Below are positions 11,029 through 60,227 of a stretch of 64,000 nucleotides of DNA, piece by piece. The stretch covers positions 516,073 to 580,072 of the forward strand of contig NZ_JH376421.1 of the NCBI RefSeq assembly GCF_000233455.1, read 5' to 3'. The notes under the pieces were generated by a model that was not told where the DNA came from, searched no databases, and saw only the letters and a program-made list of their open reading frames with translations. A program made the position numbers and the translations under genes. Numbering within the stretch: the first letter of the stretch is position 1; the number at the start of each line of letters is the position of its first letter. The DNA comes from [Clostridium] citroniae WAL-17108. GTDB lineage: Bacteria; Bacillota; Clostridia; Lachnospirales; Lachnospiraceae.

Positions 11029-11070
11029 GTCGGCACCTCTCTTTCTTTATTTCGTATCAAGCTTCTATTG

Positions 11071-12039: not shown

Positions 12040-12050
12040 AACAAGTCCTC

Positions 12051-44699: not shown

Positions 44700-45245
44700 T
44701 TATGGGAATGAAATAGAGCTGTCCACTTCATTTCCCCACACATCCCAACCGGGTGTGGATTGACGAGCAAACAGTTCTATGCGCGGGAGATCACCCATCA
44801 ATGAGACAATGCGTTCTCTGGCTTCCTGCGGTTTTTTTGAATGTTCTTCAATGTGAGAGACAATGACCTGATGAACAGCTGCGTTTATACGCTTGGGATG
44901 TCCTTTCGTTGCGAGGATACAAAGTTCCACATTGGAGCGCGTCCAATATCCCATTCCCCAGAACAAGCTATCTGCCTTTCGATTTTGCTTTACCCAAACA
45001 AAGCCGACGGTTTTATAGGTAAATCCCCATGCCTTCAGAACTGAGAGACCTTCCAGTAAACATGGAATCGTGACCCATAAAAACAAGGCACAGTCTTTAT
45101 CCGCCAAGTTGCCTACTGGCAGCGCACAAATATCCTCGATACTCATGGTCGGATAGTGACTTTCTGCACTGCGTCCCAATCCTTTCTTGGAATATACTTT
45201 GTAGTTCCATGGCGGGTCTGCGTAAATGATTTGATATTTTTTCAT
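44700..45245 (-). CDS. MT-A70-family adenine methyltransferase
   Basis: 181 residues from ATG 45245 (AAAGGAGGG upstream). The catalytic A-D-P-P-W motif is at residues 10-14 (I-I-Y-A-D-P-P-W-N-Y), followed by Y-P-T-M-S-I-E-D-I and, at the end, R-I-E-L-F-A-R-Q-S-T-P-G-W-D-V-W-G-N-E, all classical MT-A70. It likely methylates adenine in DNA. Lying within T4SS genes, it may mark the ICE DNA against host restriction. Confidence 0.85.
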   Translation of the reverse strand: MKKYQIIYADPPWNYKVYSKKGLGRSAESHYPTMSIEDICALPVGNLADKDCALFLWVTIPCLLEGLSVLKAWGFTYKTVGFVWVKQNRKADSLFWGMGYWTRSNVELCILATKGHPKRINAAVHQVIVSHIEEHSKKPQEARERIVSLMGDLPRIELFARQSTPGWDVWGNEVDSSISFP

Positions 45246-45258
45246 ACAGAACCCTCCT

Positions 45259-46128
45259 TTAGTGCGCCTGAAAGACTGATTTTGCGAGACTGCCGGTTTT
45301 GAACAGCGTAAAGCACAGCAGTACGGTGTAGCCCACGCAGCTCCAGATTGCCATGATGATGTCATCTTCCAGAGCGATGTTCTGCACCAGCACAGCATAA
45401 ATTGCCACGCAGACGATGATGAGAAACGCCTGAAAGCCCAGCGCCAGCAGGGAGCGGAGGTAGTTCTGTCCCATCCCGCCCCATTCCTTGCCCATCATGG
45501 CAGCCATCGGAAGCGGCGCAACGGATGTGACAAGGTAGATCTCAATCATACGGCCATAAATGACGATAAAGATACAGATATACAGCGCCCACATGGTAAT
45601 GCCAATAAAGAGGGACTGGAACCAAAGCCCGAATAGCGGTCCCAGATCCATTTCCATAAGTCTCGGCTCCATATCTGCCAAAACAGAAGAAATGTCAATG
45701 GACGCATCCGAACCGATGATCCCTGCTGCCTGCGCTACTACGCTCTGCGCCATATCAAAGACGCCCATCACGATATTCCATGTGTTTGTGACAATGAGGA
45801 TGGCGGCGGCTGATTTGAACACCCACTTAAAAATCATCCAGGTGTCCACATCATGCAGGTTGTTCTTGTCTGCGATCATCTGGATCAGGTCTACGGTCAT
45901 CACGATAGCCAGGATCACGCCTGCAATCGGCACCATAATGGAGTTTGACAGGTTCTCAATCATGCTGAAAATACTGCCATTCCATCCCTGTGGGGTCTGG
46001 CCTACCTGTACGGATATATCCGCGACTTGTTGGTTTACGCTGTCAAACATCCCCGAAAGGTTGCTCATAATACCGCCCACCAGCATTTCTTTCAGCCAAT
46101 TTGTCAGGGCTTCAAGTAAGAAATCCAT
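45259..46128 (-). CDS. VirB6/TrbL-like T4SS channel protein
   Basis: 289 residues, start with GGAGGTTGA. About six membrane segments, including I-M-V-P-I-A-G-V-I-L-A-I-V-M, A-L-Y-I-C-I-F-I-V-I-Y-G and F-L-I-I-V-C-V-A-I-Y-A-V. This is the polytopic inner-membrane component that follows the Maff2 gene in related ICEs. Here the Maff2 gene upstream is split by the tet(W) element, so transcription now enters from the element's right end. Confidence 0.8.
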   Translation of the reverse strand: MDFLLEALTNWLKEMLVGGIMSNLSGMFDSVNQQVADISVQVGQTPQGWNGSIFSMIENLSNSIMVPIAGVILAIVMTVDLIQMIADKNNLHDVDTWMIFKWVFKSAAAILIVTNTWNIVMGVFDMAQSVVAQAAGIIGSDASIDISSVLADMEPRLMEMDLGPLFGLWFQSLFIGITMWALYICIFIVIYGRMIEIYLVTSVAPLPMAAMMGKEWGGMGQNYLRSLLALGFQAFLIIVCVAIYAVLVQNIALEDDIIMAIWSCVGYTVLLCFTLFKTGSLAKSVFQAH

Positions 46129-46197: not shown

Positions 46198-46291
46198 TTA
46201 GACAGAGAACAGCCCGGAGAGCAGAGGTACAAGGACCATGCCGACCACGGCTACACCAGCGCCGGCCATGAGCTGCTTCATGCCCTGTGAT
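46198..46291 (-). pseudogene. Maff2-family gene, 3' half (cut off by the tet(W) element)
   Basis: Reading in frame to TAA gives S-Q-G-M-K-Q-L-M-A-G-A-G-V-A-V-V-G-M and then L-V-P-L-L-S-G-L-F-S-V, the C-terminal membrane half of a Maff2 protein. It has no start of its own. Its missing first half is at 57452-57592. Joined at the GCAAA shared by both, they give a 72-residue protein with two membrane helices, the usual Maff2 size. Maff2 sits at the VirB2-like position of the T4SS; the pilin role is a guess. Confidence 0.85.
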
Positions 46292-46296
46292 TTTGC
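46292..46296. other. Right attachment core of the tet(W) element
   Basis: TTTGC (GCAAA on the minus strand) is the junction between the Maff2 3' half and the element. An identical copy lies at 57468-57472. Outside the core the flanks are Maff2 sequence; inside they are unrelated. Confidence 0.75.
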
Positions 46297-46329
46297 TTAT
46301 GTGTGATAAAGAAGCAATAGAAGTGCAAA

Positions 46330-46375
46330 AAATTTTGCCGTTCCTATCCGACACTTGGCCATTGTGTCGGATAGG
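46330..46375 (-). terminator. Terminator of the serine recombinase gene
   Basis: CCTATCCGACAC (46343-46354) and GTGTCGGATAGG (46364-46375) form a perfect 12-bp stem; on the minus strand it is followed by AACGGCAAAATTTTTTG. It sits between the recombinase stop and the element end, so it may also help insulate the ICE genes. Confidence 0.7.
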
Positions 46376-46383
46376 TCGGGCGG

Positions 46384-48000
46384 TTATTCGGGCAAGTCAA
46401 TCTTGCCGACAAAGCTGTAATAAATCTCAATGTCCTGCCTGCGGGTGCCGTTCTCATCATAGCTGCACTCATGCACCACAATTTTCTCGATCATTTCCCG
46501 CAAGAGAGTGGGGGTCAGTTCTTCAAAGGCAAGGTGCTTGCGGACAATGCCCATAAATTTCTCGGCGTTGACGGTAGCTGCCTGTGACTTGTCCAGTTCG
46601 GCTTGCAGGGCGGCGGCTCTCTTTTTCAGCTCCGCTTGCTCGGCTTCGTAGTCAGCCGACAGTTCCATGAAACGCTCATCGCTGATTTTGCCGTTTACAT
46701 TGTCCTCATACAGCCGCTTGATAATGCGGCTGATTTCAGAAATGCGTTCCTGCGCCTGTTCAAGCTGCTTGATGGCTGCGGCGGTCTTTCGCTTGCCGCC
46801 GATCTCGTTCTGCTGGACAAGTAGTTTCACAAACCGGCTCTCATGCTTGGCTGCGTATTCGGTCACTTGCCGGAGATTTGCCAGGACACCAGCGGTCAAC
46901 AGATCGGTGCGGATAAAGTGCGCCGTACAGTTGCGGGTGCGCTTCTTGTAGCTGCCGCAGATGTAGCAGTCCTGTTTGCGGTCTTTGTTCTGATACCGCT
47001 GCTGATACAGCACATGGCCGCAGTCGGCGCAGAACAAAATCCCGGAGAACAGCCCCACTTCATCGTAGCGGTTCGGGCGTTTGCGCTGTTTGCGTAACTC
47101 CTGCACCCGTTCCCATGTTTCCTTGTCGATGATCGGCTCATGGTGGTTCTCGAAAATGGCCTGCTTCTCGACGGGGTTCTCTATGCTGTGCTTGACCTTA
47201 TAAGAAGGCTTTTCCGTTTTGAAGTTCACCAGACATCCGGTGTACTCTCGGTTTTCGAGGATATGAACGACGGTGTTGGTCGCCCATTTGCACTCATAGC
47301 CTGGGTGATAACGGCGGGTGCTGCCTGTCCGCTGATATTCCAGCGTCCCCGGCGTGGGGATTTGCTGCTCCGTCAGCATACGGGCAATCTTGGTCGGGCC
47401 GTTCCCGGCAAGGCAAAGCTGGTAAATCTGCTGCACCACCGGGGCGGCTTCCTCGTCTATAATAAAATTCTCGTCCTCGTCCATCACATAGCCGTAAACC
47501 GGCTTGCTGGTAACAGGCTTGCCGCTCATGCCTTTTGACTTTTTCACTGCCTTGATTTTCTTGCTCGTATCTCTCACCAGCCATTCATTGAACAGATTTC
47601 GCAGCGGGGTAAAATCGTTGTCCATGCCCTCGCTGGCACTGTCCACATTATCGTTGACAGCGATAAAACGCACACCCTTTTGAGGGAACAGCATTTCCGT
47701 GTAAAACCCTACCTGCAAGTAGTTTCGCCCTAACCGGCTCATGTCCTTGACGATGACCGTACCCACTTTCCCGGCTTCAATGTCCGCAAGCATGGCTTGA
47801 AATCCGGGCCGCTGGAAGTTCGCGCCGGAAAAACCGTCGTCGGTGTACCAGCGCAGATTGGTAAAGCCGTTCTGTTTTGCGTAGGTTTCGAGTATCCTTT
47901 TTTGGTTCGATATGGAATTACTCTCGCCTTGCAATTCATCCTCGTGGGACAATCTCGGATAAAGGGCGGTAATGAGGTTTTGGGTGGCTTGTCTTAACAT
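46384..48000 (-). CDS. Large serine recombinase (TndX/TnpX type)
   Basis: 538 residues, start with CGGAGG. Catalytic domain: Y-P-R-L-S-H-E-D-E with nucleophile Ser18, then Q-K-R-I-L-E-T-Y-A, D-D-G-F-S-G-A-N-F and K-D-M-S-R-L-G-R-N-Y. A recombinase domain (Y-G-Y-V...I-A-R-M-L) follows, then a zinc ribbon (C-A-D-C-G...C-Y-I-C-G) and a coiled coil near 400-470. It should integrate and excise the element between GCAAA-containing sites. The usual C in the 'YCRLS' motif is replaced by P here, which is tolerated elsewhere in the family. Confidence 0.9.
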   Translation of the reverse strand: MLRQATQNLITALYPRLSHEDELQGESNSISNQKRILETYAKQNGFTNLRWYTDDGFSGANFQRPGFQAMLADIEAGKVGTVIVKDMSRLGRNYLQVGFYTEMLFPQKGVRFIAVNDNVDSASEGMDNDFTPLRNLFNEWLVRDTSKKIKAVKKSKGMSGKPVTSKPVYGYVMDEDENFIIDEEAAPVVQQIYQLCLAGNGPTKIARMLTEQQIPTPGTLEYQRTGSTRRYHPGYECKWATNTVVHILENREYTGCLVNFKTEKPSYKVKHSIENPVEKQAIFENHHEPIIDKETWERVQELRKQRKRPNRYDEVGLFSGILFCADCGHVLYQQRYQNKDRKQDCYICGSYKKRTRNCTAHFIRTDLLTAGVLANLRQVTEYAAKHESRFVKLLVQQNEIGGKRKTAAAIKQLEQAQERISEISRIIKRLYEDNVNGKISDERFMELSADYEAEQAELKKRAAALQAELDKSQAATVNAEKFMGIVRKHLAFEELTPTLLREMIEKIVVHECSYDENGTRRQDIEIYYSFVGKIDLPE

Positions 48001-48022
48001 AAAATCCTCCGTTTCCGACAGC

Positions 48023-48071
48023 CAGCCCCACTATTCCGTGGTTTCATTGTACCACGGAACGGCGGGGGCTG
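48023..48071. repeat. Long imperfect inverted repeat upstream of the recombinase gene
   Basis: TTCCGTGGT (48034-48042) and ACCACGGAA (48051-48059) are perfectly paired around an 8-base loop, with an outer CAGCCCC/GGGGCTG pair (48023-48029, 48065-48071). It begins 22 bases upstream of the recombinase start codon, in the 5' leader, so it could be an operator or an RNA structure limiting recombinase synthesis. The rest of the 48072-48225 gap has no gene I can support. Confidence 0.5.
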
Positions 48072-48225
48072 TACAGCGGCAAAAGCGTTAAATTTGCTTC
48101 TTTACAGCTTTTCAATTTTCCGATTTTTATGGTATGGGTTGTCGTCCCATATTTGCAGTAGAAAAGTTCATAACTCCGTGGTATACTCTGATTTAACAAA
48201 AAAATCAGAAGTTAAAGGAGAAAAC

Positions 48226-48426
48226 ATGAAGTATACAATAGATGAATTAACCGCGGCCAAAAGGCAAATTGATTCAACTCTGCACAAGCTAAGAGAAACA
48301 GTAAAAACATTTGAATCAAAGGATAATTCCGAGCGTTATAAATCACAAATCACATTGGCAAAGAGAAGAATAAAAGCCTTTGAAATTGCAAATTATTTTA
48401 TAGAGAATGAGATTAAGAATTGCTAA
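48226..48426 (+). CDS. Small coiled-coil protein of the element, opposite strand
   Basis: 66 residues from ATG 48226, with AAAGGAGAA upstream. It is an AT-rich gene on the strand opposite to all its neighbours. The product is one charged helix pair (L-T-A-A-K-R-Q-I-D-S-T-L-H-K-L-R-E-T-V). It is followed by its own terminator. It may regulate the divergent recombinase. Family not recognised. Confidence 0.6.
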   Translation: MKYTIDELTAAKRQIDSTLHKLRETVKTFESKDNSERYKSQITLAKRRIKAFEIANYFIENEIKNC

Positions 48427-48447
48427 AGCACTTCCGATTTTCGTTCC

Positions 48448-48478
48448 AGCGGTCATGCTCCCTGGCATGGCCGCTTTT
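48448..48478 (+). terminator. Terminator of the plus-strand 66-aa gene
   Basis: AGCGGTCATG (48448-48457) pairs with CATGGCCGCT (48466-48475) with one mismatch, followed by TTTT. It ends just before the convergent TnpW gene. Confidence 0.65.
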
Positions 48479-48490
48479 CCATGCCCCGGT

Positions 48491-48685
48491 TCACGCCGGA
48501 TAAGTCGGCTCCTGTGTAGCAGCGGCTTCCGCTTCCAGTACCCGCGCCATTTTGTCGGCGGCTGTGGTTGTGGTGTCTTTCTTGAAATAGCCGGACACGA
48601 CAAGGACGGAATTGCCCATGCGGATTTCCGTCACACAGTCAGGGCGGCGGGTGGTGCGGGTGTCGTGCTGCTTGTTATCTGCCAT
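48491..48685 (-). CDS. tnpW: TnpW-family protein
   Basis: 64 residues from ATG 48685 (AAAGGAGTA upstream). It has the TnpW pattern: P-D-C-V-T-E-I-R-M-G-N-S-V-L-V-V-S-G-Y-F-K, then A-A-D-K-M-A-R-V-L-E-A-E. TnpW is a small protein first named in Tn4451-like clostridial transposons; its role is unknown. It lies 14 bases after the DnaC-like gene. Confidence 0.75.
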   Translation of the reverse strand: MADNKQHDTRTTRRPDCVTEIRMGNSVLVVSGYFKKDTTTTAADKMARVLEAEAAATQEPTYPA

Positions 48686-48699
48686 AGGCAATACTCCTT

Positions 48700-49542
48700 T
48701 CAGTCGGTAATCAGTTTCTTCATGCTCTCCATTTTCCGCTTGGCGGTTTCCTGCCGGAAGTTGTCGCCGGTAAAGCGTACCGGGACGCACATGGAAAGCA
48801 GGCGGTCATAAATCCGGGAATGGGCGGTGTCCTCCGGGTTGTGCAGGTCGTCCAGCGTAAGGTTGGTCGTGACGATCAGCGGCTTGCCGCTGCGGTAACG
48901 GCTGTCAATCACATTGAACACCTGTTCCAGCCCGTATTCCGTCCCGCGTTCCATGCCGAAGTCGTCAAGGATCAGCAGCGGATAACGACAAAGGCGGGAA
49001 ATGTACTCGTTGCGCCCCTCAAAGCTGGCGGCAAGGTCATTGAGGATAAGAGCAAAGTTCGTCATGCGGACGGGGATTTCTTTCTCCATGAGGGCGTTTG
49101 CGATACAGCCTGCAAGGTAGCTTTTGCCGGTGCCTACGCCGCCCCAGAACAGGCAGCCGATATTGTCTGTCCGCATATCTTCCCAATGCTCCACATACCG
49201 GCGGGCAAGCCCGGTCTGCGGGTTCCTGCCGTTGTCGTTCTCGAAAGTCCAGTCCCGCATGGTGGGGTCGGTAAAGCCCCGGCGTTTCAGTTCTTCCACG
49301 GTGTCAAGGTGTCTGCGCCGCTTTTCGGCGGCTTCCCGTTCCTCGCGGGCGGTTCTCTGGCAGTCGCACTCTGCCGGGTGGCGGTCGCGCCCGAAGATAG
49401 CGGCCTTATCCGGCGCAAAATAGGCTTCTTTCGGCTTGCGGCACTTGCCGCAGTACAGTAAACCGTCCTCGCCGGTGTAGTCCTCCGGCTCCGGGATGGT
49501 GGTCGTCATATTCTCCAAAACCGCGTTGATTTCATTCTTCAT
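48700..49542 (-). CDS. DnaC/IstB-like AAA+ ATPase
   Basis: 280 residues from ATG 49542, which overlaps the previous gene's TGA. An N-terminal zinc-type C-G-K-C...C-D-C-Q pair precedes the AAA+ module: Walker A F-W-G-G-V-G-T-G-K-S-Y-L-A, Walker B L-L-I-L-D-D-F-G, sensor V-T-T-N-L-T, and S-R-I-Y-D-R-L near the end. It is a helicase loader-type ATPase, paired with the initiator downstream in the transcript, suggesting that the element can replicate when excised. Confidence 0.85.
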   Translation of the reverse strand: MKNEINAVLENMTTTIPEPEDYTGEDGLLYCGKCRKPKEAYFAPDKAAIFGRDRHPAECDCQRTAREEREAAEKRRRHLDTVEELKRRGFTDPTMRDWTFENDNGRNPQTGLARRYVEHWEDMRTDNIGCLFWGGVGTGKSYLAGCIANALMEKEIPVRMTNFALILNDLAASFEGRNEYISRLCRYPLLILDDFGMERGTEYGLEQVFNVIDSRYRSGKPLIVTTNLTLDDLHNPEDTAHSRIYDRLLSMCVPVRFTGDNFRQETAKRKMESMKKLITD

Positions 49543-50333
49543 AAACTCTCGCCCTCCTTGCATGAGTAGTCTGGTATGCCCTTTTTAGGGGCTTCCTTTT
49601 TGTCGTTCCCCGCCCATATCCGCAGGGCGGCGGCATAGTTCTGGTAGCTTTTCCCGTTGGCGGCAAGGTAGCGGCTCATTTCCTCGATGAACCGTTCCAG
49701 CCTGTCAGGGTACTCTGCCTGCAACTCGTCGTATTCGGTCTGTGACAGAAAAATATTTCCATATCGGCCATAGGGCGCGGACGGCCCCCCACTCACTCCC
49801 TTTGTTTGGCTCTCTGTAAGGTTGTTTATAGTAGTTTGGTTAGGGGACGGTTTTCCGACCATCATAAGGTCGGTTTTCTGACCATCAGTAGGACGGTTTT
49901 CCGGCTCTATGAGGGGCGGACTTCCGGCCATCAGTTGGTCTGAAAACTGTACCTGTGGCACTGGCGGTACTTTGACATAAAGCCGGTTCGGTGCGGAGAA
50001 GCCGCCCCGTTCCCGTTCCAACAGCCCCGCCGTGTCCAGTTCATTAAGCGCCCCCTTGATGGTGGTGCTGCCTTTATCCAGTATTTCTGCTATCTCCGCG
50101 ATGGGATAGATAATATAAATCCTGCCCTCGTCGTCCAGCCACTTGTTTTTCTGGGAGAGGGTGGAACGGTCTAACAGCAGCGAATACAGCAGCTTGGCGG
50201 TCTGTGAAATCTCCATTTTCAGCAGGAAACGGGGATACGGCAGATAGGCGGGCAGCCGCGTGTCTGCCCTGATATAATCAGCGATAGGATCACCTCCCTG
50301 TGTTCGGGTTGATTTTGGCGTATTGTCACGCAT
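49539..50333 (-). CDS. Replication initiator protein A N-terminal-type protein
   Basis: 264 residues from ATG 50333. The RepA_N-type winged helix covers about residues 20-120: Y-P-R-F-L-L-K-M-E-I-S-Q-T-A-K-L-L-Y-S-L-L-L-D-R, then W-L-D-D-E-G-R-I-Y-I-I-Y-P and L-N-E-L-D-T-A-G-L-L. The C-terminal part has a helical domain like DnaD/DUF6017 (Y-L-A-A-N-G-K-S-Y-Q-N-Y). It is directly coupled to the ATPase gene. Probable initiator of the element's own origin. Confidence 0.8.
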   Translation of the reverse strand: MRDNTPKSTRTQGGDPIADYIRADTRLPAYLPYPRFLLKMEISQTAKLLYSLLLDRSTLSQKNKWLDDEGRIYIIYPIAEIAEILDKGSTTIKGALNELDTAGLLERERGGFSAPNRLYVKVPPVPQVQFSDQLMAGSPPLIEPENRPTDGQKTDLMMVGKPSPNQTTINNLTESQTKGVSGGPSAPYGRYGNIFLSQTEYDELQAEYPDRLERFIEEMSRYLAANGKSYQNYAAALRIWAGNDKKEAPKKGIPDYSCKEGESL

Positions 50334-50405
50334 TAAAACGCCGTTTCCGGGGGAAAAGGATAAATGTATCGCGTACCCTTTGACACCCACGAAAAAAGCC
50401 TTGAT

Positions 50406-50792
50406 TTATGCGGGTTTGAAAGGCTCTAAAGCGTGACATCTCTGCCTTTGTTTCCGCTTTCTCTCGGCGGCTTTGATTTTCTTCATGCGCCCGGCGCAGT
50501 CGGGGCAGTATTTTCCCCGGTTGGATTTGGGGACAAAGGCCGCCCCGCAGACGGCACACCGTTTCCGGCTTCCCCGGCACAAGAGGGCTGCGGCCAGCTC
50601 CCCGTCAAGGGGCAGGACAGCCACACGGAACCAGTGGCACATGAGGGAAAAGGAAATGCTCTGGACGCACACGCAAGGCTCCCCGTCGTCCAATAGCAGG
50701 CAGTTCCCCTCATCGTAGTTACAGCACTCATGTACCAGCCGCCGCGCCCGCCGGTGCTGGCGGTAGTCCATGTGGGGCAGGTTATCGCTCAT
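50406..50792 (-). CDS. Cysteine-rich VLP-domain protein
   Basis: 128 residues from ATG 50792, which overlaps the end of the relaxase gene. It matches the cysteine-rich VLP family: R-R-A-R-R-L-V-H-E-C-C-N-Y-D-E-G-N-C-L-L-L-D, then R-K-R-C-A-V-C-G-A-A-F-V and Y-C-P-D-C-A. Two zinc sites are likely. These proteins accompany mobilization genes in clostridial elements. Function unknown. Confidence 0.75.
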   Translation of the reverse strand: MSDNLPHMDYRQHRRARRLVHECCNYDEGNCLLLDDGEPCVCVQSISFSLMCHWFRVAVLPLDGELAAALLCRGSRKRCAVCGAAFVPKSNRGKYCPDCAGRMKKIKAAERKRKQRQRCHALEPFKPA

Positions 50793-52416
50793 GGCTCTGC
50801 TCCTTTCTGCGGTGCGGCTCGTCCCGGCGCAAAATCTGGTCGATGTTCCGCTTGACGGTCTGCAACTCCTTGAACCGCTGTTTCTGTTCGTGATAGGTGT
50901 TATACAGGCCGTCTTTCTCGGAGATAAGCTGCTCGATCTCGGCCTGCAACGCTTTCCGGGCGGGCAGCTTGGTAATGCCATGCGCCTTGAAATACCGGGC
51001 TGCTGCGTCGGCTATGATAAAATCGCTCTCATGGGCCTGCCGGTATGCGGCGCGGGCTTTCTCGGATTTCTGTGCCCGCAGCCCGTCGCGGGCGGCCTTG
51101 GTCTGGGCGTAGGCCAACACCTGCCGCTGCAACTTCTTTTTCCCTTGCAGCTTCGTTTCCAGTGCTTTCAGTTCGCCGCTGGTCTGGCGCATTTTCTGAT
51201 AGGCGGTGTCAACGGCGGCTTCTAACTGCTCCGGGGAAGTAAAGCCGTATTGCTGGTAGACGGACAGCGTTTTGGCGGCCTGCTTCAGATTGTGTATCTT
51301 CGCCCAGCGTTCATAGCCCCGGCCTTTGCCCTCGGCCATTTTCTGCTCAATGTCCACAAGCCGCTGCACTCCGTCCTGTTTCGGGGCGGCTATCTCGGCT
51401 CTGGCAACCTGCAAGCGGTCTTTTATGGTGCGTGGGGGATCGGGGGATCTGGCTGGCGCTTCGGCTGCTCTGGCGGCGTTTTGCTCTAAAACGGCAAAGA
51501 CAGCGGCGCGGTCAAAATCGTCGCCCAGCTTCCGGGCGGTAATTGGCTTTGTCCTGTCCGGCGTGAGGTAGGAAAGCCGCCCCCGGCTCTCCTTGACGGT
51601 CACACCCTCCTGCAGCAACAGAGAGGAAAACTCGTCAAAGCTGGCGGCGGTGGCAAGGGCTTTCCGTAGGGTCTGCCGCAGCTTCTCCTTGTTCGTTTCA
51701 AACTTGGTCTGCCGGGGCGTGATACTATCGGCAATCATGGGGGCGTTCTGCTTGTCCAGCGCGGCCTGTCCCTTTTTCTGCGCCCAATACTCCCGGTCGG
51801 TGACGCGGTTCTTGCTGCCGTTCAAGAGGTCGATTTGATAAAGCCCCTCCCGGTGGCACATCTCCATGACTTCGGATTTGAAGTAGCGCAGGGCAGCGTC
51901 GGTACATCGGTGCTTGCAGCCGACTTTCGTATCGGCCGGCCTGTCCATGTAGGGCAGGAACGGCACTTCCTCAATCCGCAGGCTGTTTATGACGATATGC
52001 ACATGAATGTTGCCGCTGTGGTTATGCCCGTCCGGGTGGGTGCAGACAAGGGCCTGGTGGCCGGGAAAATGCTCTTTACAGAATTGTTCCCCCAACGCCT
52101 GCGCCCGGTCTACGGTCAGGCCGTTGTCCGGCCCGTCCCGCGGGTCAAAGCTGATGATGTAGTGGTGGCTTTTCACATCTTCCCGCCGCTGGTTTTTCTG
52201 ATAGCGGAGATTGGCCCGCATACACGCAACGGCAAAATCCTCCCCGTCGCAGTTCAGCGTGGACAGCCGGTAGTCCTCGCGGGGGATAAGCCTGCCGGTT
52301 TCATCAAGGACGGGCTTCATGGTAAACTCGTCATGCTCAAAGAGAAGATATTGCTCGGCGGCTCCGTAGTCGGCGTTTTTAGAGTTGATATGCTTGAGTG
52401 TTGCCAACCGCGTCAC
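50782..52416 (-). CDS. MobA/MobL-type relaxase of the tet(W) element
   Basis: 544 residues. The relaxase domain has H-H-Y-I-I-S-F-D-P-R-D near 85, then H-P-D-G-H-N-H-S-G-N-I-H-V-H-I-V-I-N (three-His metal site, about 125-142). The C-terminal 250 residues form a basic coiled coil. It overlaps MobC upstream by 38 bases and the VLP gene downstream by 11. It should nick the element's oriT and allow transfer by a helper T4SS. It is a different relaxase from the ICE's own. Confidence 0.85.
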   Translation of the reverse strand: MTRLATLKHINSKNADYGAAEQYLLFEHDEFTMKPVLDETGRLIPREDYRLSTLNCDGEDFAVACMRANLRYQKNQRREDVKSHHYIISFDPRDGPDNGLTVDRAQALGEQFCKEHFPGHQALVCTHPDGHNHSGNIHVHIVINSLRIEEVPFLPYMDRPADTKVGCKHRCTDAALRYFKSEVMEMCHREGLYQIDLLNGSKNRVTDREYWAQKKGQAALDKQNAPMIADSITPRQTKFETNKEKLRQTLRKALATAASFDEFSSLLLQEGVTVKESRGRLSYLTPDRTKPITARKLGDDFDRAAVFAVLEQNAARAAEAPARSPDPPRTIKDRLQVARAEIAAPKQDGVQRLVDIEQKMAEGKGRGYERWAKIHNLKQAAKTLSVYQQYGFTSPEQLEAAVDTAYQKMRQTSGELKALETKLQGKKKLQRQVLAYAQTKAARDGLRAQKSEKARAAYRQAHESDFIIADAAARYFKAHGITKLPARKALQAEIEQLISEKDGLYNTYHEQKQRFKELQTVKRNIDQILRRDEPHRRKEQSHER

Positions 52417-52777
52417 CTACTTTCTTGAGGACTTCATACTTGAGGACGGCAAGGTCGGATATGGCGGCGCGTACCTCGCCGGAAAGGGTGTTGTAGGGTA
52501 CGCCGTATTCGTTCAGATACCGGGCAATCTGATTGAGGTTGCCGCCGATCCTGCCGTACTCGGCTGTCAGCTTCCCGACAGCGGAAAGCAACTCGTCATT
52601 GACCGACGACACATGGACAACCGGGCGTATGGTCGCCCGCCGTATCGCCTGCCGGAGAAATTCGGACTGGCTGATACCATAGGGCGCAAGCCGCGCTGTG
52701 AAGTCGGCATACTCATCTTCGGACAGCCGGGTTTTCACAACGCGGCTGCGGTGGGGCGTGTTGTATTTCTTTCGCAT
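52379..52777 (-). CDS. mobC: MobC-type relaxosome protein of the tet(W) element
   Basis: 132 residues from ATG 52777 with AGGAGGTCA upstream; an upstream in-frame extension is non-coding. An RHH-like N-terminus (V-V-K-T-R-L-S-E-D-E-Y-A-D-F), then Y-G-I-S-Q-S-E-F-L-R-Q-A-I and the MobC signature G-G-N-L-N-Q-I-A-R-Y-L-N. It overlaps the relaxase start. Partner for oriT opening. Confidence 0.8.
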   Translation of the reverse strand: MRKKYNTPHRSRVVKTRLSEDEYADFTARLAPYGISQSEFLRQAIRRATIRPVVHVSSVNDELLSAVGKLTAEYGRIGGNLNQIARYLNEYGVPYNTLSGEVRAAISDLAVLKYEVLKKVGDAVGNTQAYQL

Positions 52778-53199
52778 GGTGTGACCTCCTTTCTCGCCCG
52801 TAAGGGCGCATGAGCAGGGTTTGGGGAAGGCACTCCCCAACAAGTTTCCCGCGAGGGGCAAAACTGCAGAATTGCGGATTTTGGCACCGTGGTAGAAACT
52901 TGCTCTCCGTGACTGCAAACTTTCTCTCACTTCCGTCCGCCACTTTTTTGGAAAACTGCAACCACAAAAGTTTGTTTCTCTTTTTCTGCTACTACTAATC
53001 CTGTAAAGGGCATTCCTGCCCGCTTTCGCTAAAATGACACCGGACGCAGTGGTTTCTACCCGGTGTTGGAGAAATCCTTTCTCTTTGCCCTCTACTACGG
53101 GTAAATGCTCCAAATGCCAAACACCAGGGCAGAAAAATTCCCTCCTCGCTTACTACTACAACCGGCAGGGGGCAAAATGGCCGGGAGCGGAGCCGGACA
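52778..53199. other. Non-coding mobilization region, candidate oriT of the tet(W) element
   Basis: No credible gene occupies this stretch. At 52821-52827 and 52834-52840 TTGGGGA/TCCCCAA form an inverted repeat followed by CAAG. The string 52820-52844 closely matches the motif beside the ICE relaxase at 18040-18063 (shared TTGGGG, GCACT, CCC and CAACAAG). It is directly upstream of mobC and the relaxase gene, the expected place for oriT. Confidence 0.45.
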
Positions 53200-53240
53200 A
53201 CAAAAAAAGCAGTAAATCTTTTTCAAGACTTACTGCTTTC
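53200..53240 (-). terminator. Terminator of the sigma-factor operon
   Basis: AAAGCAGTAA (53206-53215) and TTACTGCTTT (53230-53239) form a perfect 10-bp stem. On the minus strand the stem is followed by TTTTTTTG, 35 bases after the HTH-protein gene. Confidence 0.8.
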
Positions 53241-53274
53241 GCTGGCCGCGTCGGTGGCGGCTGGTATTCAGTTT

Positions 53275-53487
53275 TTATGACTTGTCCGGTGGTTCGTCAA
53301 GCCGGAACTTGAATTGACAGTCAATTAACCGCTGCTTTACATAGTCCTCCACCTCGGCGTTGACCTGCCCGTTCACTTTTGAGAAATAGCGGATATATCC
53401 GGCGTAGTGGAGCAGGACAGCGTTCACGGCTTCTGGGTCGCCCTCACGGGCTTTGAGGATTGTTTCATAGGGGAGAAGTCTACTCAT
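53275..53487 (-). CDS. Helix-turn-helix-type small protein (conjugative-transposon type)
   Basis: 70 residues; its ATG lies inside the end of the sigma-factor gene (8-base overlap). It reads L-L-P-Y-E-T-I-L-K-A-R-E-G-D-P-E-A-V-N-A-V-L, then Y-I-R-Y-F-S-K. This resembles the small HTH proteins paired with sigma-like regulators in Tn916-type elements. Probably a partner or co-regulator of the sigma factor. Confidence 0.7.
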   Translation of the reverse strand: MSRLLPYETILKAREGDPEAVNAVLLHYAGYIRYFSKVNGQVNAEVEDYVKQRLIDCQFKFRLDEPPDKS

Positions 53488-53902
53488 ACCGGCTCACCCC
53501 CATTTCTTCGCGTAGCCGCTGCAAGGCAAGCTGGATATGCCGCCCCGCTGTGCTGCGTGACCGGCCAATACACGCGCCGATCACGCGCTGCGGCTGGCGC
53601 AGAAAGTAATAGCGCAGGATTTCTTCCCGCGTCTGCTCCGGCAAAACAGAGATCGCGTCGGCAAGGGCGGCGTTGCAGAGCAGGACGGTCTGACCGCAGA
53701 CGGTAAATGGGTATTCCTCGTCCGGCTCCGACGCGGCAAACTGGACAAACTTCTCGTTCATCAGATAGTCAAGGGAAACTTGCCGTTCCCATTGCCGTTT
53801 AAGCTTCAAAATCTTGTCCAAGGCGGCACAGCGGATAACAGTCTTGCAAAAGGCGTTGTACCTGCGCTGGATATATTCTTGATAGGCTATCTGGTCGGTC
53901 AT
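53480..53902 (-). CDS. Sigma-70-like regulator of the element
   Basis: 140 residues from ATG 53902. Region 2-like start (Y-I-Q-R-R-Y-N-A-F-C-K-T-V-I-R) and region 4-like end (L-P-E-Q-T-R-E-E-I-L-R-Y-Y-F-L, then G-A-C-I-G-R-S-R-S-T-A-G-R-H-I). Such short sigma-like proteins control transfer genes in Tn916-like elements. It is located between tet(W) and the mobilization genes, so it could link resistance-gene transcription to transfer, as in Tn916. Confidence 0.75.
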   Translation of the reverse strand: MTDQIAYQEYIQRRYNAFCKTVIRCAALDKILKLKRQWERQVSLDYLMNEKFVQFAASEPDEEYPFTVCGQTVLLCNAALADAISVLPEQTREEILRYYFLRQPQRVIGACIGRSRSTAGRHIQLALQRLREEMGVSRYE

Positions 53903-54073
53903 GGAAATTCCCCTTTCTGAATAATAGTGCGGGGCGGTGGCACTTCTTGCTGTCGCCCCTTGATTGCCTACCAGCAAAGGCGGGCGGGGCTGTCAACGGC
54001 TGCGCATATGCGCCGTTCATCTTGACCGTTGACTGGCTCGGCTGGGTTTGCTATTTACCCGACAAACTTGAAT

Positions 54074-54841
54074 TTATTTTAAGCTATCACGTTTTACCTT
54101 CTTAAGCCTTACTATCATTACCATAGGAATTTCTTTGTTGGTTTTAAAACATTCTTCATAAAATCCATCAATGACAAATCCAGCTCTAAAACAAAGGTTA
54201 AAAATATCTTGTATGGAACGATGATAATAAATCTGCTCTTTCGGTTGCCCTTCAATCGCTATATCATAGTAACTGTGCGGTGTCATATATTTTTCAGTCA
54301 ACGTGACAAAACAAGGGTGTTGCGTTGCAAAGACAAAAATTCCGCTTTCCTGCAACAGTTCATAAACAGCCATAAGAAGTGGTTCAATATCCGTAATATC
54401 CATAATTGCCATATTAGAAACTGCTTTCGTAAAGGCTCGATTTCTTTTTAATTCTAATATACTTTTTCTATCGGTCGCATCCGCCACACAAAATTCAATT
54501 TGTTTTGCATATTGTGATTGCCGTCTTTTAGCCAATTCTATCATTTTTTTGCTGTAATCAAAAGCGACAACCGAAGCGCCTCTTTGTGCAAGATACGAAG
54601 AATAATTTCCATTGCCACACGCAATATCCAAAATGTAATCCGCAGGATTAGGAGATAGAAGTTCCGTTACTTTGGGACGCACTACCTCTCTGTGAAATTC
54701 ATTAGATTCGTCACCCATTGCATTATCCCAAAATTGTGCGTTCTCCTCCCAGATTTTTTTACTTTCCTCTGTTCCCATGTTCTCTCCCACTCCCCAAATT
54801 TGCTTTTTTGCTTCCATTAAATCTTCCTTACTATATTCCAT
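54074..54841 (-). CDS. Class I SAM-dependent methyltransferase downstream of tet(W)
   Basis: 255 residues from ATG 54841. Motif I is Y-I-L-D-I-A-C-G-N-G-N-Y-S-S-Y-L (about 65-80), then V-V-A-F-D-Y-S-K-K-M-I and a Y-E-L-L-Q-E-S-G-I-F-V-F-A post-motif. The small-molecule or protein target is unknown. It is AT-rich compared with tet(W) and lies 50 bases downstream on the same strand, so it is likely co-transcribed. An accessory gene at this position recurs near tet(W) and tet(O), but no resistance role is shown here. Confidence 0.75.
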   Translation of the reverse strand: MEYSKEDLMEAKKQIWGVGENMGTEESKKIWEENAQFWDNAMGDESNEFHREVVRPKVTELLSPNPADYILDIACGNGNYSSYLAQRGASVVAFDYSKKMIELAKRRQSQYAKQIEFCVADATDRKSILELKRNRAFTKAVSNMAIMDITDIEPLLMAVYELLQESGIFVFATQHPCFVTLTEKYMTPHSYYDIAIEGQPKEQIYYHRSIQDIFNLCFRAGFVIDGFYEECFKTNKEIPMVMIVRLKKVKRDSLK

Positions 54842-54891
54842 TGTTACCCTCCATAACTTCTGATTGTTGCCGTCTTGACGATTATGTATCT

Positions 54892-56811
54892 TTACATTAC
54901 CTTCTGAAACATATGGCGCACCTTGTCCAGGCGGCTGTTTGGACGGCGGGGCTGGATGACCGGCTGACCGACAGCGGCCTGATATCCTTTCAGCTCTGTA
55001 AGGCATACGCTCCGCCCGTTGGTGTAAAAGGCCAGATCAGTACGGTATGCCTGTATACAGCGGGCGGGAATCTCGCCAGTAAAGACAACTTCATCCTTTT
55101 TTACCTGGGCCGTTTCGATGGTGGCACAGTATTTCGGTGCATCATGATAAGCCCTGGAAAGGTATTCCTGGGGCGCATAGAGGATGAAGGAGAGATAAGG
55201 TTCCAGCAGCTGCGTCCCCGATTCCTTCAATGCCTGTTCCAATACAATCGGGGCCAATGAGCGGAAGTCCGCCGGCGTGCTGACCGGACTGTAATAAAGC
55301 CCGTATTCAAAGCAAATCTTACAGTCCGTTACGTTCCAGCCGAACAAGCCCTGCTCCAGCCCGTAACGGATACCATCCCTGACAGCGTTTTGAAAACTCT
55401 GGTTCAAGTATCCCAGCGAAACCCGGCTCTCGTATTGTACACCGGAGCCAAGCGAGAGTGGTGTAACAGACAGTCCTATGGATGCCCAAAACGGGTTGGG
55501 CGGCACCTCGATATGGATGGTGTGGCTGGCTGCTTTGAGCGGCCGCTCCATATAAATGACGGAGGGTTCCTTTACCACTGTTTCAAGCTTGTATTTTTCC
55601 GACAGCAAAGCGGAAACAACCTCCAACTGCACCCGGCCCAAAAAAGAAAGAATGATCTCATGGGTGATGGAATCCACTTCGCAACGCAAAAGCGGGTCAG
55701 TATCCGCAAGTTGCGTAAGAGCGTCCAGCAGCCGTTCTCTTTGCGCTGCCGTTTTCGGCGCAATCGTCGTCCGCAGCATGGGGAGGGGGTCCTCGCGCCA
55801 CCTTTTACGAGGGAGCCGGGTTTGGTCCCCTAATACATCGTTTAACCTCACGCTGTCGCTGGGAAGGATAACAATTTCACCCTGATAAGCGGTGTCTGTC
55901 CGAACAATTTCCCCTTTGGATGGAATACGCATCTCTGTGATTTTCAGCTTTTCTCTCCCGGCCAGGGCCACCGTATCCCGCAGGCGCAGCGTTCCGCTGT
56001 ATAACCGTAGATAGACACGCCGCTGGCCGCAATCGGTGTACTCAACCTTGAAAACGCTGCCGCATAGGGCGGCGCCCCCCTGTTCCCCAATCGGTTGGAA
56101 CAGCCCTGTCACCGCATCCATCAACGGTTGAATGCCAAGGCCATTTTTGGCGCTGCCATGATAGACTGGGAACAGGGAGGCGTCTTGAACCCGCTGCTGT
56201 TCCTCCCGCGCAAGTTTTTCCCGGCTGATTGGTTCTCCTGCGATATACTTTTCCAATAATTCATCGTTATTTTCGATGACCGCATCCCATGCTTCTATGT
56301 CGGTATTTTCCTCCAGGACTATTTCCGGGGACAGCGACACCGTCTGCTTGATGATAATATCGGCGGAGAGCTTATCCCGAACAGACTGAACCACGCTCTG
56401 CAAATCAACGCCAGCCTGGTCGATCTTGTTGATAAAGATAACGGTGGGAATGTTCATTTTCCGCAGGGCATGGAACAGAATACGGGTCTGGGCCTGCACG
56501 CCATCTTTAGCGGAGATCACCAAGATGGCCCCATCTAAAACAGCCAAAGAGCGGTACACCTCCGCCAAAAAATCCATGTGGCCGGGCGTATCCACAATGT
56601 TAACTTTACATCTGTGCCACTGGAAGGAAGTGACTGCCGCTTGAATGGTAATCCCACGCTGCCGCTCCAAAAACATGGTGTCCGTCCTCGTTGTCCCTTT
56701 TTCGACGCTCCCCGGTTCTGAAATGGCTCCGCTGGCATATAGCAGGCTCTCCGTCAAGGTCGTCTTTCCAGCGTCTACATGGGCAAGAATTCCAATATTG
56801 ATTATTTTCAT
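54892..56811 (-). CDS. tet(W): Tet(W) ribosomal protection protein
   Basis: 639 residues, the full Tet(W) length, start with AGGGAGG. It is an EF-G-like GTPase with G1 A-H-V-D-A-G-K-T-T (residues 10-18), G3 D-T-P-G-H-M-D-F near 74 and N-K-I-D (G4) near 128. The C-terminal EF-G domains IV/V end in H-M-F-Q-K-V-M. It displaces tetracycline from the ribosome. No frameshift is seen. Its leader peptide and attenuator lie just upstream (56844-56915). Confidence 0.95.
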
Positions 56812-56843
56812 GTGATTGTCCTCCCTTTACAGCCCCAAAGGGC

Positions 56844-56884
56844 ATAAAAATCCCCAGCAGTAAAATACTTTTACCACTGGGGAT
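56844..56884 (-). terminator. tet(W) leader attenuator hairpin
   Basis: ATCCCCAG (56850-56857) pairs with CTGGGGAT (56877-56884), with an inner GTAAAA/TTTTAC; on the minus strand TTTTTATG follows. The 5' arm overlaps the end of the leader peptide gene, so ribosome position can decide whether it forms, as in tet(M). Confidence 0.75.
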
Positions 56885-56915
56885 TATAAGTTGCGGACAT
56901 ACACATATACAGCAT
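56871..56915 (-). CDS. tet(W) leader peptide (14 aa)
   Basis: ATG 56915 to TAA 56871 encodes M-L-Y-M-C-M-S-A-T-Y-N-P-Q-W. It overlaps the attenuator hairpin and precedes the tet(W) ribosome site. The layout matches the leader-attenuator of tet(M)-group genes: tetracycline stalls or slows ribosomes and lets transcription pass. Confidence 0.75.
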   Translation of the reverse strand: MLYMCMSATYNPQW

Positions 56916-56969
56916 ACACCTGTTTGTGATTGCTGTTTTTGGGGATATGTCAAAATTGATAAGGCAAAA

Positions 56970-57066
56970 GTATTCTTAAATTGGGTACAAAAAACTAAGC
57001 CCCTACAAAAGGAGCTATCATAATCCTTTGTTCCCACTATTTGATTATAGTTTTATTTAAGAATAC
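56970..57066. repeat. 12-bp inverted repeats upstream of tet(W)
   Basis: GTATTCTTAAAT (from about 56970) and ATTTAAGAATAC (ending near 57065) are perfect inverted copies about 70 bases apart in the tet(W) leader. TTGACA lies on the minus strand between them and the leader peptide. Similar long-range repeats occur upstream of other tet(M)-group genes and may fold the leader RNA. Confidence 0.45.
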
Positions 57067-57451
57067 CTTGCCGCATATTTTTTACTCCTTTTCTGGATTA
57101 AATCATTGTATCACATCAGTTTTAGGAAAGCAAGTACCTAAAAGAAATTTTTCTTCCCCTTATATGTAACAATCATACCGGCTTCCTAGCGTTCAGAATG
57201 TTTTCTGCTGTCTGCTGTGGTGTTTGGTTGGAATTGTCCAACCAAAAGCCGATCCGTGGTGTTGTCTGCATTTTACTAAATACAAATTCAATGTATACAG
57301 AAAGATATAAGGAGTGGGAGGGATTCCGCCGTAGTTGGCATTGTAGGAAAATCCAAAAGTTTAGATTTTCCCACAATGCTTATCTTTTGGTCTTTGGTTC
57401 GGAATAGTGTAGTGCTGGCGGTCTATCTCTTGTTTTCGGTTGCTTGCTTCC
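57067..57451. other. Left end of the tet(W) element, no supported gene
   Basis: A 10-bp perfect inverted repeat, TTTGGTTGGA (57223-57232) and TCCAACCAAA (57237-57246), sits in this stretch, as does an AAAATC/GATTTT pair near 57350-57371. A 69-codon plus-strand frame has no ribosome site or recognisable sequence. The region probably holds recombinase binding sites and the far upstream part of the tet(W) transcript. Confidence 0.45.
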
Positions 57452-57592
57452 TTACCGTACATGAGCATTTGCACCAGGGTTGTCGTTGCCGTAACCTTCG
57501 AGCAGGTTGATAACGCCCCAGATACCGAGACCGGCACCGAGCGCGATAACGAGGGTCTGAAGAACGGTGATTGCCTGTTCAAAAAATGCCAT
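57452..57592 (-). pseudogene. Maff2-family gene, 5' half (truncated by the tet(W) element)
   Basis: From ATG 57592 the frame gives M-A-F-F-E-Q-A-I-T-V-L-Q-T-L-V-I-A-L-G-A, then G-V-I-N-L-L-E-G-Y-G-N-D-N-P-G-A, a typical Maff2 N-terminus. It then runs into element DNA and stops after six foreign codons (TAA at 57454-57452), giving 46 residues. The remainder is at 46198-46291. As it stands the ICE lacks an intact copy. Confidence 0.85.
57468..57472. other. Left attachment core of the tet(W) element
   Basis: TTTGC (GCAAA on the minus strand), identical to 46292-46296. The Maff2 reading frame continues without gap if the DNA between one core and the other is removed. Confidence 0.75.
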
Positions 57593-57813: not shown

Positions 57814-59643
57814 TTAAGCGCCCTCTGTGTCTACTTCATATACATCGCAGACCTCATTGGGCTTGAGTTTCAGCCTTGCGGACAGGAATGCTTCAATGTC
57901 AAAAGCGTTCTTATCATCCGCGTCGGCAGTGTACTGGAAATTGGGGTGCTTGGTAATGTCGTACTTGTCCGAAAGAAAAGGACGCACACCGCGCAGCTGG
58001 AGAATACACTTGCCGCCATCCATAACAGCAAGCTCATCCTGGCTCATCAGCTCTTTCCCCAACTTTTGATAGTTGAGAGAGTGGGAAGTTTCACGCCCAC
58101 GGCTCTCTCCGGTGTTGTAGGTGTCGATGGTTTCCTTGCCCAGCACGGCAGCCAGCTCTTTGAGGGTGGTTGGCTCCTTACCGCCCAGGAAGATGGAAGT
58201 ATCCATGTTGCCGATGATGGTATCTGCGTTATCCTTATAGATCGCCTTCAGCTGACTCTGTGCCTGCAACACCAGACAGGCGGAAATCTCACGGCTTCGG
58301 ATGGTGGCAACCAGCTTTTCCAGCTTGGGGATCTGGCCGATGTTGGCGCACTCGTCAATGAGACAGCGCACATGGACCGGGAGCCTGCCGCCATACACAT
58401 CGTCGGCTTTTTCGCAGAGCAGGTTAAAAAGCTGGGTATAACACATGGAAATAAGGAAGTTGAAGCTGTCGTCAGTATCACTCATGATGAGGAATAGGGC
58501 AGTTTTCCTATCTCCCAGAGTGTCTAGCTCCAGCTCATCATAAGCCGTGACCTCACGCAGCTCTGCAATGTCGAACACGGCAAGACGCGCACCACAGGAA
58601 ATTAGGATCGACTTGGCTGTTTTTCCTGCCGCCAGCTTATATTTCTTATACTGGCGCACCGCAAAGTGGTTCGGCTTCTCGGCTTCCAATGCGTCAAACA
58701 TCAGATCCACGGGATTTTTGAACTCCTCGTCATCCTCCCGGACTTCCATAGCGTTGATGAACTCAATAAGGGTGGAGAAATTCTGTTCCTCCACCGGAGC
58801 CTCATAGTGGATATAGCCAATGAGCGCACAATAGAGAAGCGTTTCTGCCTTGACCCAGAAATCGTCTCCGGCCTTGCCTTCGCCTTTGGTATTGGCGATC
58901 AGCGTCGTGACCAGCTTCAAGATGTCCTTTTCGCTATGGATATAGGCGAAAGGGTTATAGTGCATGGACTTCTTGAAGTTGATGGTATTGAGGACCTTGA
59001 TGCGGTAAGGCTCATAAATGACCTTGCCGTGTTTATCCTTCATTGGCTTTCCGTCCTTCCCCAGCTTGGGTGCGCCCCTTTGGAGCATTTTTCCGCACTC
59101 CACCAAAATGGTTCCCTTCGGGTCTGTGACCACATAAGAACTGTGCATCTGCATCAGATTCGGTTTGAGCCAGAAGCGGGTCTTACCGGAACCGGAGCCG
59201 CCGATCACCAGCACATTTTTGTTTCTGGCGGTCTTGGGGCCCTTGGGGCGGCTGTTCATGGTCAGGCTCTCGGTTTTGGTCAGAATCACATTGTTCTGGA
59301 ACACCGGGTCGATGTAGGGTGCAATATCCTCACGGGTTCCCCAACGGGCAGAGCCATACTCCATACCGTGACGGTACTTCTTGGCGTTTTTACTTTTGAG
59401 GTACACCGCCAGACGCAGGCCAGCACCGCAGCACAGCCCTACCAGCAGATCCAACGGGTGCAGGCTGGGCCAGAAACTTTGCAGCGCCCCAGGCAGGACA
59501 GCAAACAGGGAAAGGAATTTCTCTGAAGCATTTGCCCCCTGAGCCAGTCGCCATGCCTCCCCGAAGTTAGTAGCAAACAGCCCCATCAGGAGATAGGGCA
59601 GGTTCAGCAAAACGAGCTTTTTGATGTCAAACTGCTTTTTCAT
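57814..59643 (-). CDS. VirD4-like type IV coupling protein
   Basis: 609 residues. Two N-terminal membrane segments (about 9-28 and 60-80) precede the ATPase: Walker A I-G-G-S-G-S-G-K-T-R-F (about 143-153), D-P-K-G-T-I-L-V-E, and Walker B C-L-I-D-E-C-A-N-I-G (about 424). It delivers the relaxase-DNA complex to the channel. The start overlaps the PcfB gene by four bases with a good AAAGGAG site. Confidence 0.9.
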   Translation of the reverse strand: MKKQFDIKKLVLLNLPYLLMGLFATNFGEAWRLAQGANASEKFLSLFAVLPGALQSFWPSLHPLDLLVGLCCGAGLRLAVYLKSKNAKKYRHGMEYGSARWGTREDIAPYIDPVFQNNVILTKTESLTMNSRPKGPKTARNKNVLVIGGSGSGKTRFWLKPNLMQMHSSYVVTDPKGTILVECGKMLQRGAPKLGKDGKPMKDKHGKVIYEPYRIKVLNTINFKKSMHYNPFAYIHSEKDILKLVTTLIANTKGEGKAGDDFWVKAETLLYCALIGYIHYEAPVEEQNFSTLIEFINAMEVREDDEEFKNPVDLMFDALEAEKPNHFAVRQYKKYKLAAGKTAKSILISCGARLAVFDIAELREVTAYDELELDTLGDRKTALFLIMSDTDDSFNFLISMCYTQLFNLLCEKADDVYGGRLPVHVRCLIDECANIGQIPKLEKLVATIRSREISACLVLQAQSQLKAIYKDNADTIIGNMDTSIFLGGKEPTTLKELAAVLGKETIDTYNTGESRGRETSHSLNYQKLGKELMSQDELAVMDGGKCILQLRGVRPFLSDKYDITKHPNFQYTADADDKNAFDIEAFLSARLKLKPNEVCDVYEVDTEGA

Positions 59644-60140: not shown

Positions 60141-60175
60141 TTTCATCGCCTCCTATTACAATAAATTTGGACAGG

Positions 60176-60200
60176 AAAGCCGGGCAGCCAGTCCGGCTTT
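60176..60200. repeat. Hairpin upstream of pcfB
   Basis: AAAGCCGG (60176-60183) and CCGGCTTT (60193-60200) form a perfect 8-bp stem over 9 bases. It lies at the ICE/IS110 border and could be a terminator stem or an IS110 target, as some IS110-group elements insert in or near palindromes. Confidence 0.45.
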
Positions 60201-60227
60201 CTTTCCATCTCGTGCCTAAGCTACAAT

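What the first reader, a model, noticed from the sequence alone, without database searches (positions are those of the whole stretch)
46198..57592. tet(W) element splits the ICE's Maff2 gene precisely and reversibly
The 5' and 3' halves of one Maff2 gene flank an 11.2-kb serine-recombinase element at identical GCAAA copies; removing the element restores a 72-residue frame. The element would switch off a T4SS component of its host ICE while integrated and restore it on excision, which could couple ICE transfer to movement of the resistance element.
Basis: partly seen in the sequence, partly recalled or inferred. Interest (0 to 1): 0.75.

Follow-up and report, generated by a model that had tools for sequence, protein, structure and literature searches.

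The report
tet(W) mobilizable element inside Maff2 gene
A tetracycline-resistance element that can move between bacteria has inserted exactly into a small gene of a larger conjugative element; such insertions, and the idea that leaving again would restore that gene, are already in print, so the finding is real but largely known.

Summary
One Maff2 gene is split: 5' part at window 57468-57592(-), 3' part at 46198-46293(-). Between them lies an 11,174-bp element with a large serine recombinase, relaxase, MobC-like protein, replication genes and tet(W). No intact Maff2 was found in the genome. A same-genus genome holds a nearly identical ICE with an uninterrupted 72-aa Maff2 there, so an empty-site allele exists.

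Correction: the shared crossover core is AA, in an invariant Lys codon; the matching GCAAA is partly coincidence.

The element fits IME_Rho_tet (PMC12904643, 2026), already reported in MAFF2 genes. That excision of such IMEs frees ICE transfer was proposed in 2017 (PMC5357655, PMC5704250). Contrary data: ICESp2905 also transferred whole, with its maff2 IME inside.

Added here: a sibling without tet splits the genome's other Maff2 at the same codon; 9 of 27 Maff2-inserted elements with both ends in view lack tet, one carrying Erm(G); some Maff2 genes appear to hold two elements; a conserved terminator-like hairpin ends the element; Maff2 resembles T4SS pilins, below cut-off in 7 of 18 copies. 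Coupling of excision to ICE transfer is plausible, not shown.

The parts
57468..57592 (-). 5' part of the ICE's Maff2 gene (codons 1-41 plus AA of codon 42)
   Evidence: PF12750 positions 1-43, 83.6 bits; same residues as natural intact copies
57452..57592 (-). 46-codon truncated ORF made by the junction
46198..46293 (-). 3' part of the same Maff2 gene, from the AA core to the stop
   Evidence: PF12750 positions 40-70, 43.6 bits
46294..57467 (-). inserted element, 11,174 bp, IME_Rho_tet type
   Evidence: boundaries from junctions compared over 27 loci; whole length covered at 98.5-100% identity in 19 of 80 named loci
46294..46317 (+). terminal inverted repeat at the recombinase end
   Evidence: 19 of 24 positions equal to the reverse complement of the other end
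57444..57467 (-). terminal inverted repeat at the tet(W) end
46337..46381 (-). hairpin followed by AAAATTTTTT, terminator-like, inside the element before the Maff2 3' part
   Evidence: z -5.31; 14 of 15 pairs form in all 15 aligned variants
46384..48000 (-). large serine recombinase, 538 aa
   Evidence: Resolvase, Recombinase, Zn_ribbon_recom and DUF4368 domains, all above cut-off
48700..49563 (-). DnaC-like ATPase
   Evidence: PF01695 and NCBIfam NF005992 above cut-off
49539..50390 (-). RepA_N replication initiator
   Evidence: PF06970, 61.9 bits
50782..52416 (-). MobA/VirD2-type relaxase
   Evidence: PF03432, 54.7 bits
52379..53113 (-). ORF with NikA/MobC-like accessory protein (tested as 52379-52840)
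   Evidence: PF21983, 44 bits
53480..53977 (-). sigma-70 region 4-like protein
   Evidence: PF08281 25.6 bits, just below its cut-off of 25.7
54074..55006 (-). SAM-dependent methyltransferase (tested as 54074-54868)
   Evidence: several methyltransferase domains above cut-off
54892..56811 (-). tet(W), ribosomal protection protein, 639 aa
   Evidence: NF033148 1284.7 bits (cut-off 1100); plasmid records named tet(W) match at 100%
57814..59643 (-). host ICE: VirD4/TraG coupling protein, intact
   Evidence: PF02534, 162.9 bits
45259..46128 (-). host ICE: VirB6-like TrbL_2
   Evidence: PF19478, 172.9 bits
44230..44694 (-). host ICE: PrgI
   Evidence: PF12666, 106.6 bits
41874..44339 (-). host ICE: VirB4-type ATPase (TraG P-loop domain)
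   Evidence: PF19044, 46.6 bits
39795..41513 (-). host ICE: CHAP-domain cell-wall hydrolase
   Evidence: PF05257, 39.7 bits

Best explanation
[quoted passage not shown] The crossover lies at the AA of the Lys42 codon, in the polar loop between the two hydrophobic stretches of Maff2 (shown by comparison). While integrated, it leaves a 46-codon 5' ORF and a 3' remnant without a start, and puts its own terminator-like hairpin ahead of virB6, prgI and virB4 (anatomy shown, termination inferred). The ICE is therefore probably unable, or less able, to build its mating channel until the element leaves (inferred). The element moves with its own relaxase and very likely an ICE's T4SS (inferred). Leaving would return maff2 to the state seen in the close relative (inferred). 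Maff2 is most likely a small pilin-like T4SS subunit (inferred from sub-threshold matches).
For: Split gene and frame-compatible lengths. Empty-site ICE in the same genus, flanks 97.2, 95.6, 91.1 and 99.9% identical. AA core. IME_Rho_tet spacing: 90 bp and 656 bp from the boundaries here, 81-90 bp and about 656 bp in the paper. Copies of 98.5-100% identity in 19 of 80 loci with unlike flanks or targets. Conserved hairpin. Pilin-like matches of Maff2.
Against: No excision product seen. ICESp2905 was also transferred with its maff2 IME inside. The hairpin's T-run is preceded by AAAA, and the simple terminator scan lists only a smaller stem there. Profile-profile comparison with pilins was weak (probability 3.8), and no solved structure matched. 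Half genes that are merely young would also look undamaged.
Confidence: 0.55

Rival explanations
1. Same element and same site, but Maff2 is dispensable or replaceable: the insertion is a safe berth that costs the ICE little, and there is no switch.
For: ICESp2905 transferred with its IME in maff2. Some ICEs carry several intact Maff2 copies. 13 of 29 Maff2 5' ends in the genus are interrupted.
Against: Maff2 is highly conserved: 35 invariant columns of 72 in 18 copies. The window's ICE has no second copy. Halves differ from intact copies only synonymously.
Confidence: 0.3
2. The insertion is a dead end: it has permanently crippled this ICE, whose T4SS genes are on the way to decay.
For: No empty allele in this genome. 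The genome's second ICE has both maff2 and virD4 interrupted.
Against: Both halves and the VirD4, VirB6, PrgI and VirB4 genes of the window's ICE are open. 36 of 50 Maff2-like 3' flanks of related elements keep the full 3' frame, though recent insertion would explain that too.
Confidence: 0.12
3. The tet(W) unit is a fixed passenger that only spreads with this ICE.
For: The element is nested in an ICE; PMC12904643 discusses this possibility.
Against: Near-identical elements lie in ICEs whose aligned flanks are about 66-85% identical, and in other targets in 9 of 19 cases.
Confidence: 0.03

Closest known systems
IME_Rho_tet (PMC12904643, Microb Genom 2026)
   Same: Gene set, boundary spacing, serine recombinase with inverted terminal repeats, tet(W), insertion into MAFF2 ORFs (116 of 256 resolved sites in the paper), empty ICE in a relative.
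   Different: This copy is 11,174 bp against 10,695 bp for the canonical one. Siblings without tet or with Erm(G), seen here, would fall outside the paper's detection rule, which required a Tet protein.
IMEs in maff2, traG and snf2 of Tn5252-superfamily ICEs (PMC5357655, PMC5704250)
   Same: Serine integrases inserting into conserved ICE genes; two sites within maff2; hypothesis that excision on induction of conjugation restores the ICE.
   Different: Described in streptococci; other integrase families and cargo.
Prophages with serine recombinases that interrupt host genes and leave when the gene is needed (named in PMC5357655, section 25)
   Same: An insertion splits a gene that excision returns to its uninterrupted state.
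   Different: Here the interrupted gene belongs to another mobile element, and regulated excision is unproven.

Membership tests
IME_Rho_tet | Tet(W)-type protein, relaxase and serine recombinase co-located, with MobC and methyltransferase, in one orientation | tested here: met
IME_Rho_tet | 3' boundary 81-90 bp after the recombinase stop; 5' boundary about 656 bp from tet(W) | tested here: met
   90 bp and 656 bp; published values
IME_Rho_tet | Inverted terminal repeats of about 21 bp | tested here: met
   19 of 24 positions equal; the letters of the published motif are in a figure and were not compared
IME_Rho_tet | Recombinase at least 85% similar to that of R. hominis A2-183 | tested here: inconclusive
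   The canonical sequence was not fetched. Recombinase 100% identical to that of Blautia schinkii DSM 10518 (L084), whose element the paper links to IME_Rho_tet, and 95% to R. hominis An869
IME_Rho_tet | Independent mobility | not testable with these tools
   Only comparative evidence; the paper also calls it putative
Tn5252-superfamily ICE (host element) | VirD4, Maff2, VirB6, PrgI, VirB4 and CHAP genes in one cluster | tested here: met
   the superfamily label for such clusters is from PMC5357655, and relaxase, integrase and ICE ends were not looked for
Pfam T4SS_pilin (PF18895), for Maff2 | Score above the curated cut-off of 26.6 bits | tested here: not met
   7 of 18 Maff2 proteins match at E<=1, 14.8-23.9 bits, best E 4.5e-5, nearly full length
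Pfam T4SS_pilin (PF18895), for Maff2 | Pilin fold by structure | not tested
   Structure prediction was not open

The most novel reading that the evidence does not exclude
Maff2 is the ICE's T4SS pilin-like subunit, and a whole group of mobilizable elements parks in the loop codons of its gene, at two neighbouring codons that can both be filled at once, each adding a transcription stop. They would hold the host ICE's mating channel off until they themselves leave. The cargo (tet, erm or neither) is exchangeable on this chassis.
Probability: 0.3. Interest if true: 0.6.

Novelty: already known. Interest (0 to 1): 0.3.

Why it matters
PMC12904643 names this element family as the main carrier of tet(W) in gut bacteria. 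If its position silences the conjugation genes of the ICE that houses it, spread of the resistance gene and spread of the ICE are sequential or competing rather than additive. The AA core, the pilin-like nature of the target, members without tet and double occupancy of one small gene are details that I did not see in the passages and sections read; they make the 2017 switch hypothesis easier to test.

Tried and rejected
Rejected: GCAAA as the duplicated core (searches give AA). Rejected: the element as a fixed passenger of one ICE. Rejected: decay as the reason for the twelve short 3' flanks that end after about ten codons. They fit a second insertion: of six genomes checked out of the twelve loci, five have the 1-43 and 45-70 pieces 20-23 kb apart on one contig and one has them on separate contigs. 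That these two pieces belong to one gene is inferred from position.

Led nowhere: profile-profile comparison of Maff2 with pilins (probability 3.8, 15 columns); profile search of solved structures (best E 0.15, unrelated); plasmid records (775 match, none covers 80% of the element); phylum-wide sampling (Maff2 in 10 of 299 genomes); structure prediction (not open). The simple terminator scan did not list the main hairpin, only a smaller stem at 46353-46336.

Papers: PMC12904643: outline, abstract, passages, part 1 of 2 of the Results. PMC5357655: passages and section 25. PMC5704250: passages and section 13. PMC6868206: one passage. PMC1538676 not held. Others: search listings only. Searches for prior statements. 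The two papers holding both 'maff2' and 'pilin' are off-topic by title and abstract start, so in this library I found no statement that Maff2 is a pilin.

Full report
Observation. A Pfam Maff2 search of the whole genome gives four matches, all half genes: positions 1-43 and 40-70 at the window site, and the same pair again on contig C1. In the window the 5' part ends at 57468 and the 3' part begins at 46293 on the minus strand. Compared separately with six natural intact copies, the halves differ at 4-13 of 125 and 3-7 of 94 nt, all synonymous among the complete codons counted.

Correction of the core. In 27 of 27 loci where a Maff2 5' part and the recombinase are both in view, the 5' junction is a varying Maff2 triplet, then AA, then the constant element end TGCTCATG; at the other end the element supplies the bases before AA. 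All 66 distinct intact Maff2 DNA copies that my motif recognised have AA here, 26 of them within GCAAA. The crossover is therefore read as AA, the first two bases of a Lys codon that is invariant in 18 of 18 aligned copies. That a serine recombinase uses a central dinucleotide is recalled knowledge.

What the element is. Between 46294 and 57467 (11,174 bp) lie a 538-aa serine recombinase, a DnaC-like ATPase, a RepA_N initiator, a relaxase, a NikA/MobC-like protein, a sigma-like protein just below cut-off, a methyltransferase and tet(W). The boundaries are 90 bp from the recombinase stop and 656 bp from the tet(W) start. PMC12904643 gives 81-90 bp and about 656 bp for IME_Rho_tet and reports 116 of 256 resolved insertions in MAFF2 ORFs. 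The ends form an inverted repeat with 19 of 24 equal positions. Of 80 named loci, 19 cover the whole element at 98.5-100% mean identity and 33 cover at least 90% of it; Blautia schinkii DSM 10518, which the paper links to IME_Rho_tet, is among the 19.

Mobility. Of the 19, ten have a Maff2-like 3' flank and nine another target. In the ten, the alignable pieces of flank are 65.5-84.6% identical to this ICE (5' flank in ten of ten, 3' flank in six of ten); the nine others show no match to either flank. Of 74 loci with at least 200 bp of flank, 48 have a Maff2 3' part after the recombinase by profile, 36 by a stricter single-sequence test.

Empty site. G007, same genus, has this ICE with flanks 97.2, 95.6, 91.1 and 99.9% identical and an uninterrupted 72-aa Maff2 at the place of the element. 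L163, L164, L166 and L167 also have an intact Maff2 there. These five loci were fetched because searches showed intact Maff2 in them. In the genus search, 17 genomes gave 16 full-length Maff2 genes and 13 interrupted 5' ends: ten at positions 42-44, three at 51.

Second case in the same genome. On C1 another Maff2 is split at the same codon by a sibling element: recombinase 85% identical, aligned backbone pieces 74-78% identical in DNA. The listed ORFs of at least 120 aa there show no tet gene, and no blastn piece covers tet(W). Next to it the virD4 gene is reduced to a 250-aa ORF with a DnaC/Rep/relaxase set beyond it, which looks like an IME in traG as described in PMC5704250. Of the 27 loci with a Maff2 5' part in view, 18 carry a tet match and 9 do not. 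One of the nine has Erm(G) above its cut-off (L121), and one an Erm-like methylase below it (L110, 192.3 against 212 bits).

Two elements in one gene. Of 50 Maff2-like 3' flanks, 36 run to the normal stop, 12 stop after about ten codons, 2 are otherwise short (24 loci with other targets and 6 with short flanks were left out). Of six genomes checked out of the twelve, five have the 1-43 and 45-70 pieces 20-23 kb apart on one contig and one has them on separate contigs. A second recombinase, 38-40% identical, starts about 9 kb downstream in 5 of the 14 loci, and a weaker 22% piece appears in one more. Two maff2 sites are already described in streptococci.

How it would work. The insertion leaves a 46-codon ORF and a 3' piece without a start. 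The named element genes run in the direction of the ICE's T4SS genes. Just inside the element's end is a hairpin followed by AAAATTTTTT; it folds better than all 200 shuffles (z -5.31; sibling -4.11; the other end of the element, as a control, 0.04). Fifteen of 23 distinct variants were aligned: 14 of 15 pairs form in all of them, one forms in only one. Cells with changes on both sides (6) and the covariation score exceed all 500 shuffles, but the number of such pairs (2; 186/500) and of pair types (3; 404/500) does not. If it terminates, virB6, prgI and virB4 are shut off too (inferred).

What Maff2 is. It has two hydrophobic stretches around a polar loop that holds codon 42. Seven of 18 copies match the Pfam T4SS pilin family at E<=1, nearly full length, 14.8-23.9 bits against a cut-off of 26.6, best E 4.5e-5. 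Other chance-like families match one or two copies each, DUF308 at 8.1e-4 being the best of these. Profile-profile comparison was weak and no solved structure matched. I read Maff2 as a probable pilin-like subunit, at about 0.4; it is not filed as a member.

Interpretation. That induction of conjugation might excise such IMEs, restore the disrupted gene and let ICE and IME transfer was proposed in PMC5357655 and PMC5704250. In the only tested case, ICESp2905, transconjugants held the IME alone, the ICE without that IME, or the whole ICE with it, which does not settle the matter. I score it as already known, interest 0.3.

Noticed in passing
L031 (G000:C1:1393000-1412000), about 5330-13140: Sibling element without a tet gene in the genome's other Maff2, same codon; the neighbouring virD4 gene is also cut, apparently by another IME.
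   Followed up: partly
L121:3198-3932(+), L110:2483-3412(+): Related Maff2-inserted elements carry Erm(G) (above cut-off) or an Erm-like methylase (below cut-off) instead of tet.
   Followed up: partly
L141, L105, L139, L074, L148 (G559, G560, G561, G563, G564): One Maff2 gene seems to hold two elements in tandem, at two codons about nine residues apart.
   Followed up: partly
G356:C1:2473203, 2484361, 2495519: Three Maff2 1-51 pieces spaced exactly 11,158 bp apart: perhaps a tandem array of a site-2 element.
   Followed up: no
L163, L164, L167 (window equivalents about 59160, 58626, 58850): In close relatives of this ICE the virD4 gene is interrupted at three different places.
   Followed up: no
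window 60170-61763: A stretch with an IS110-family transposase (60429-61637) is absent from the close relative L165.
   Followed up: no
window 44700-45398(-): An MT-A70 methyltransferase gene lies between virB6 and prgI in the T4SS cluster.
   Followed up: no
G344:C1:95369-97583; G008:C14:3661-4298: Two or three full-length Maff2 genes close together, which would buffer the loss of one.
   Followed up: no
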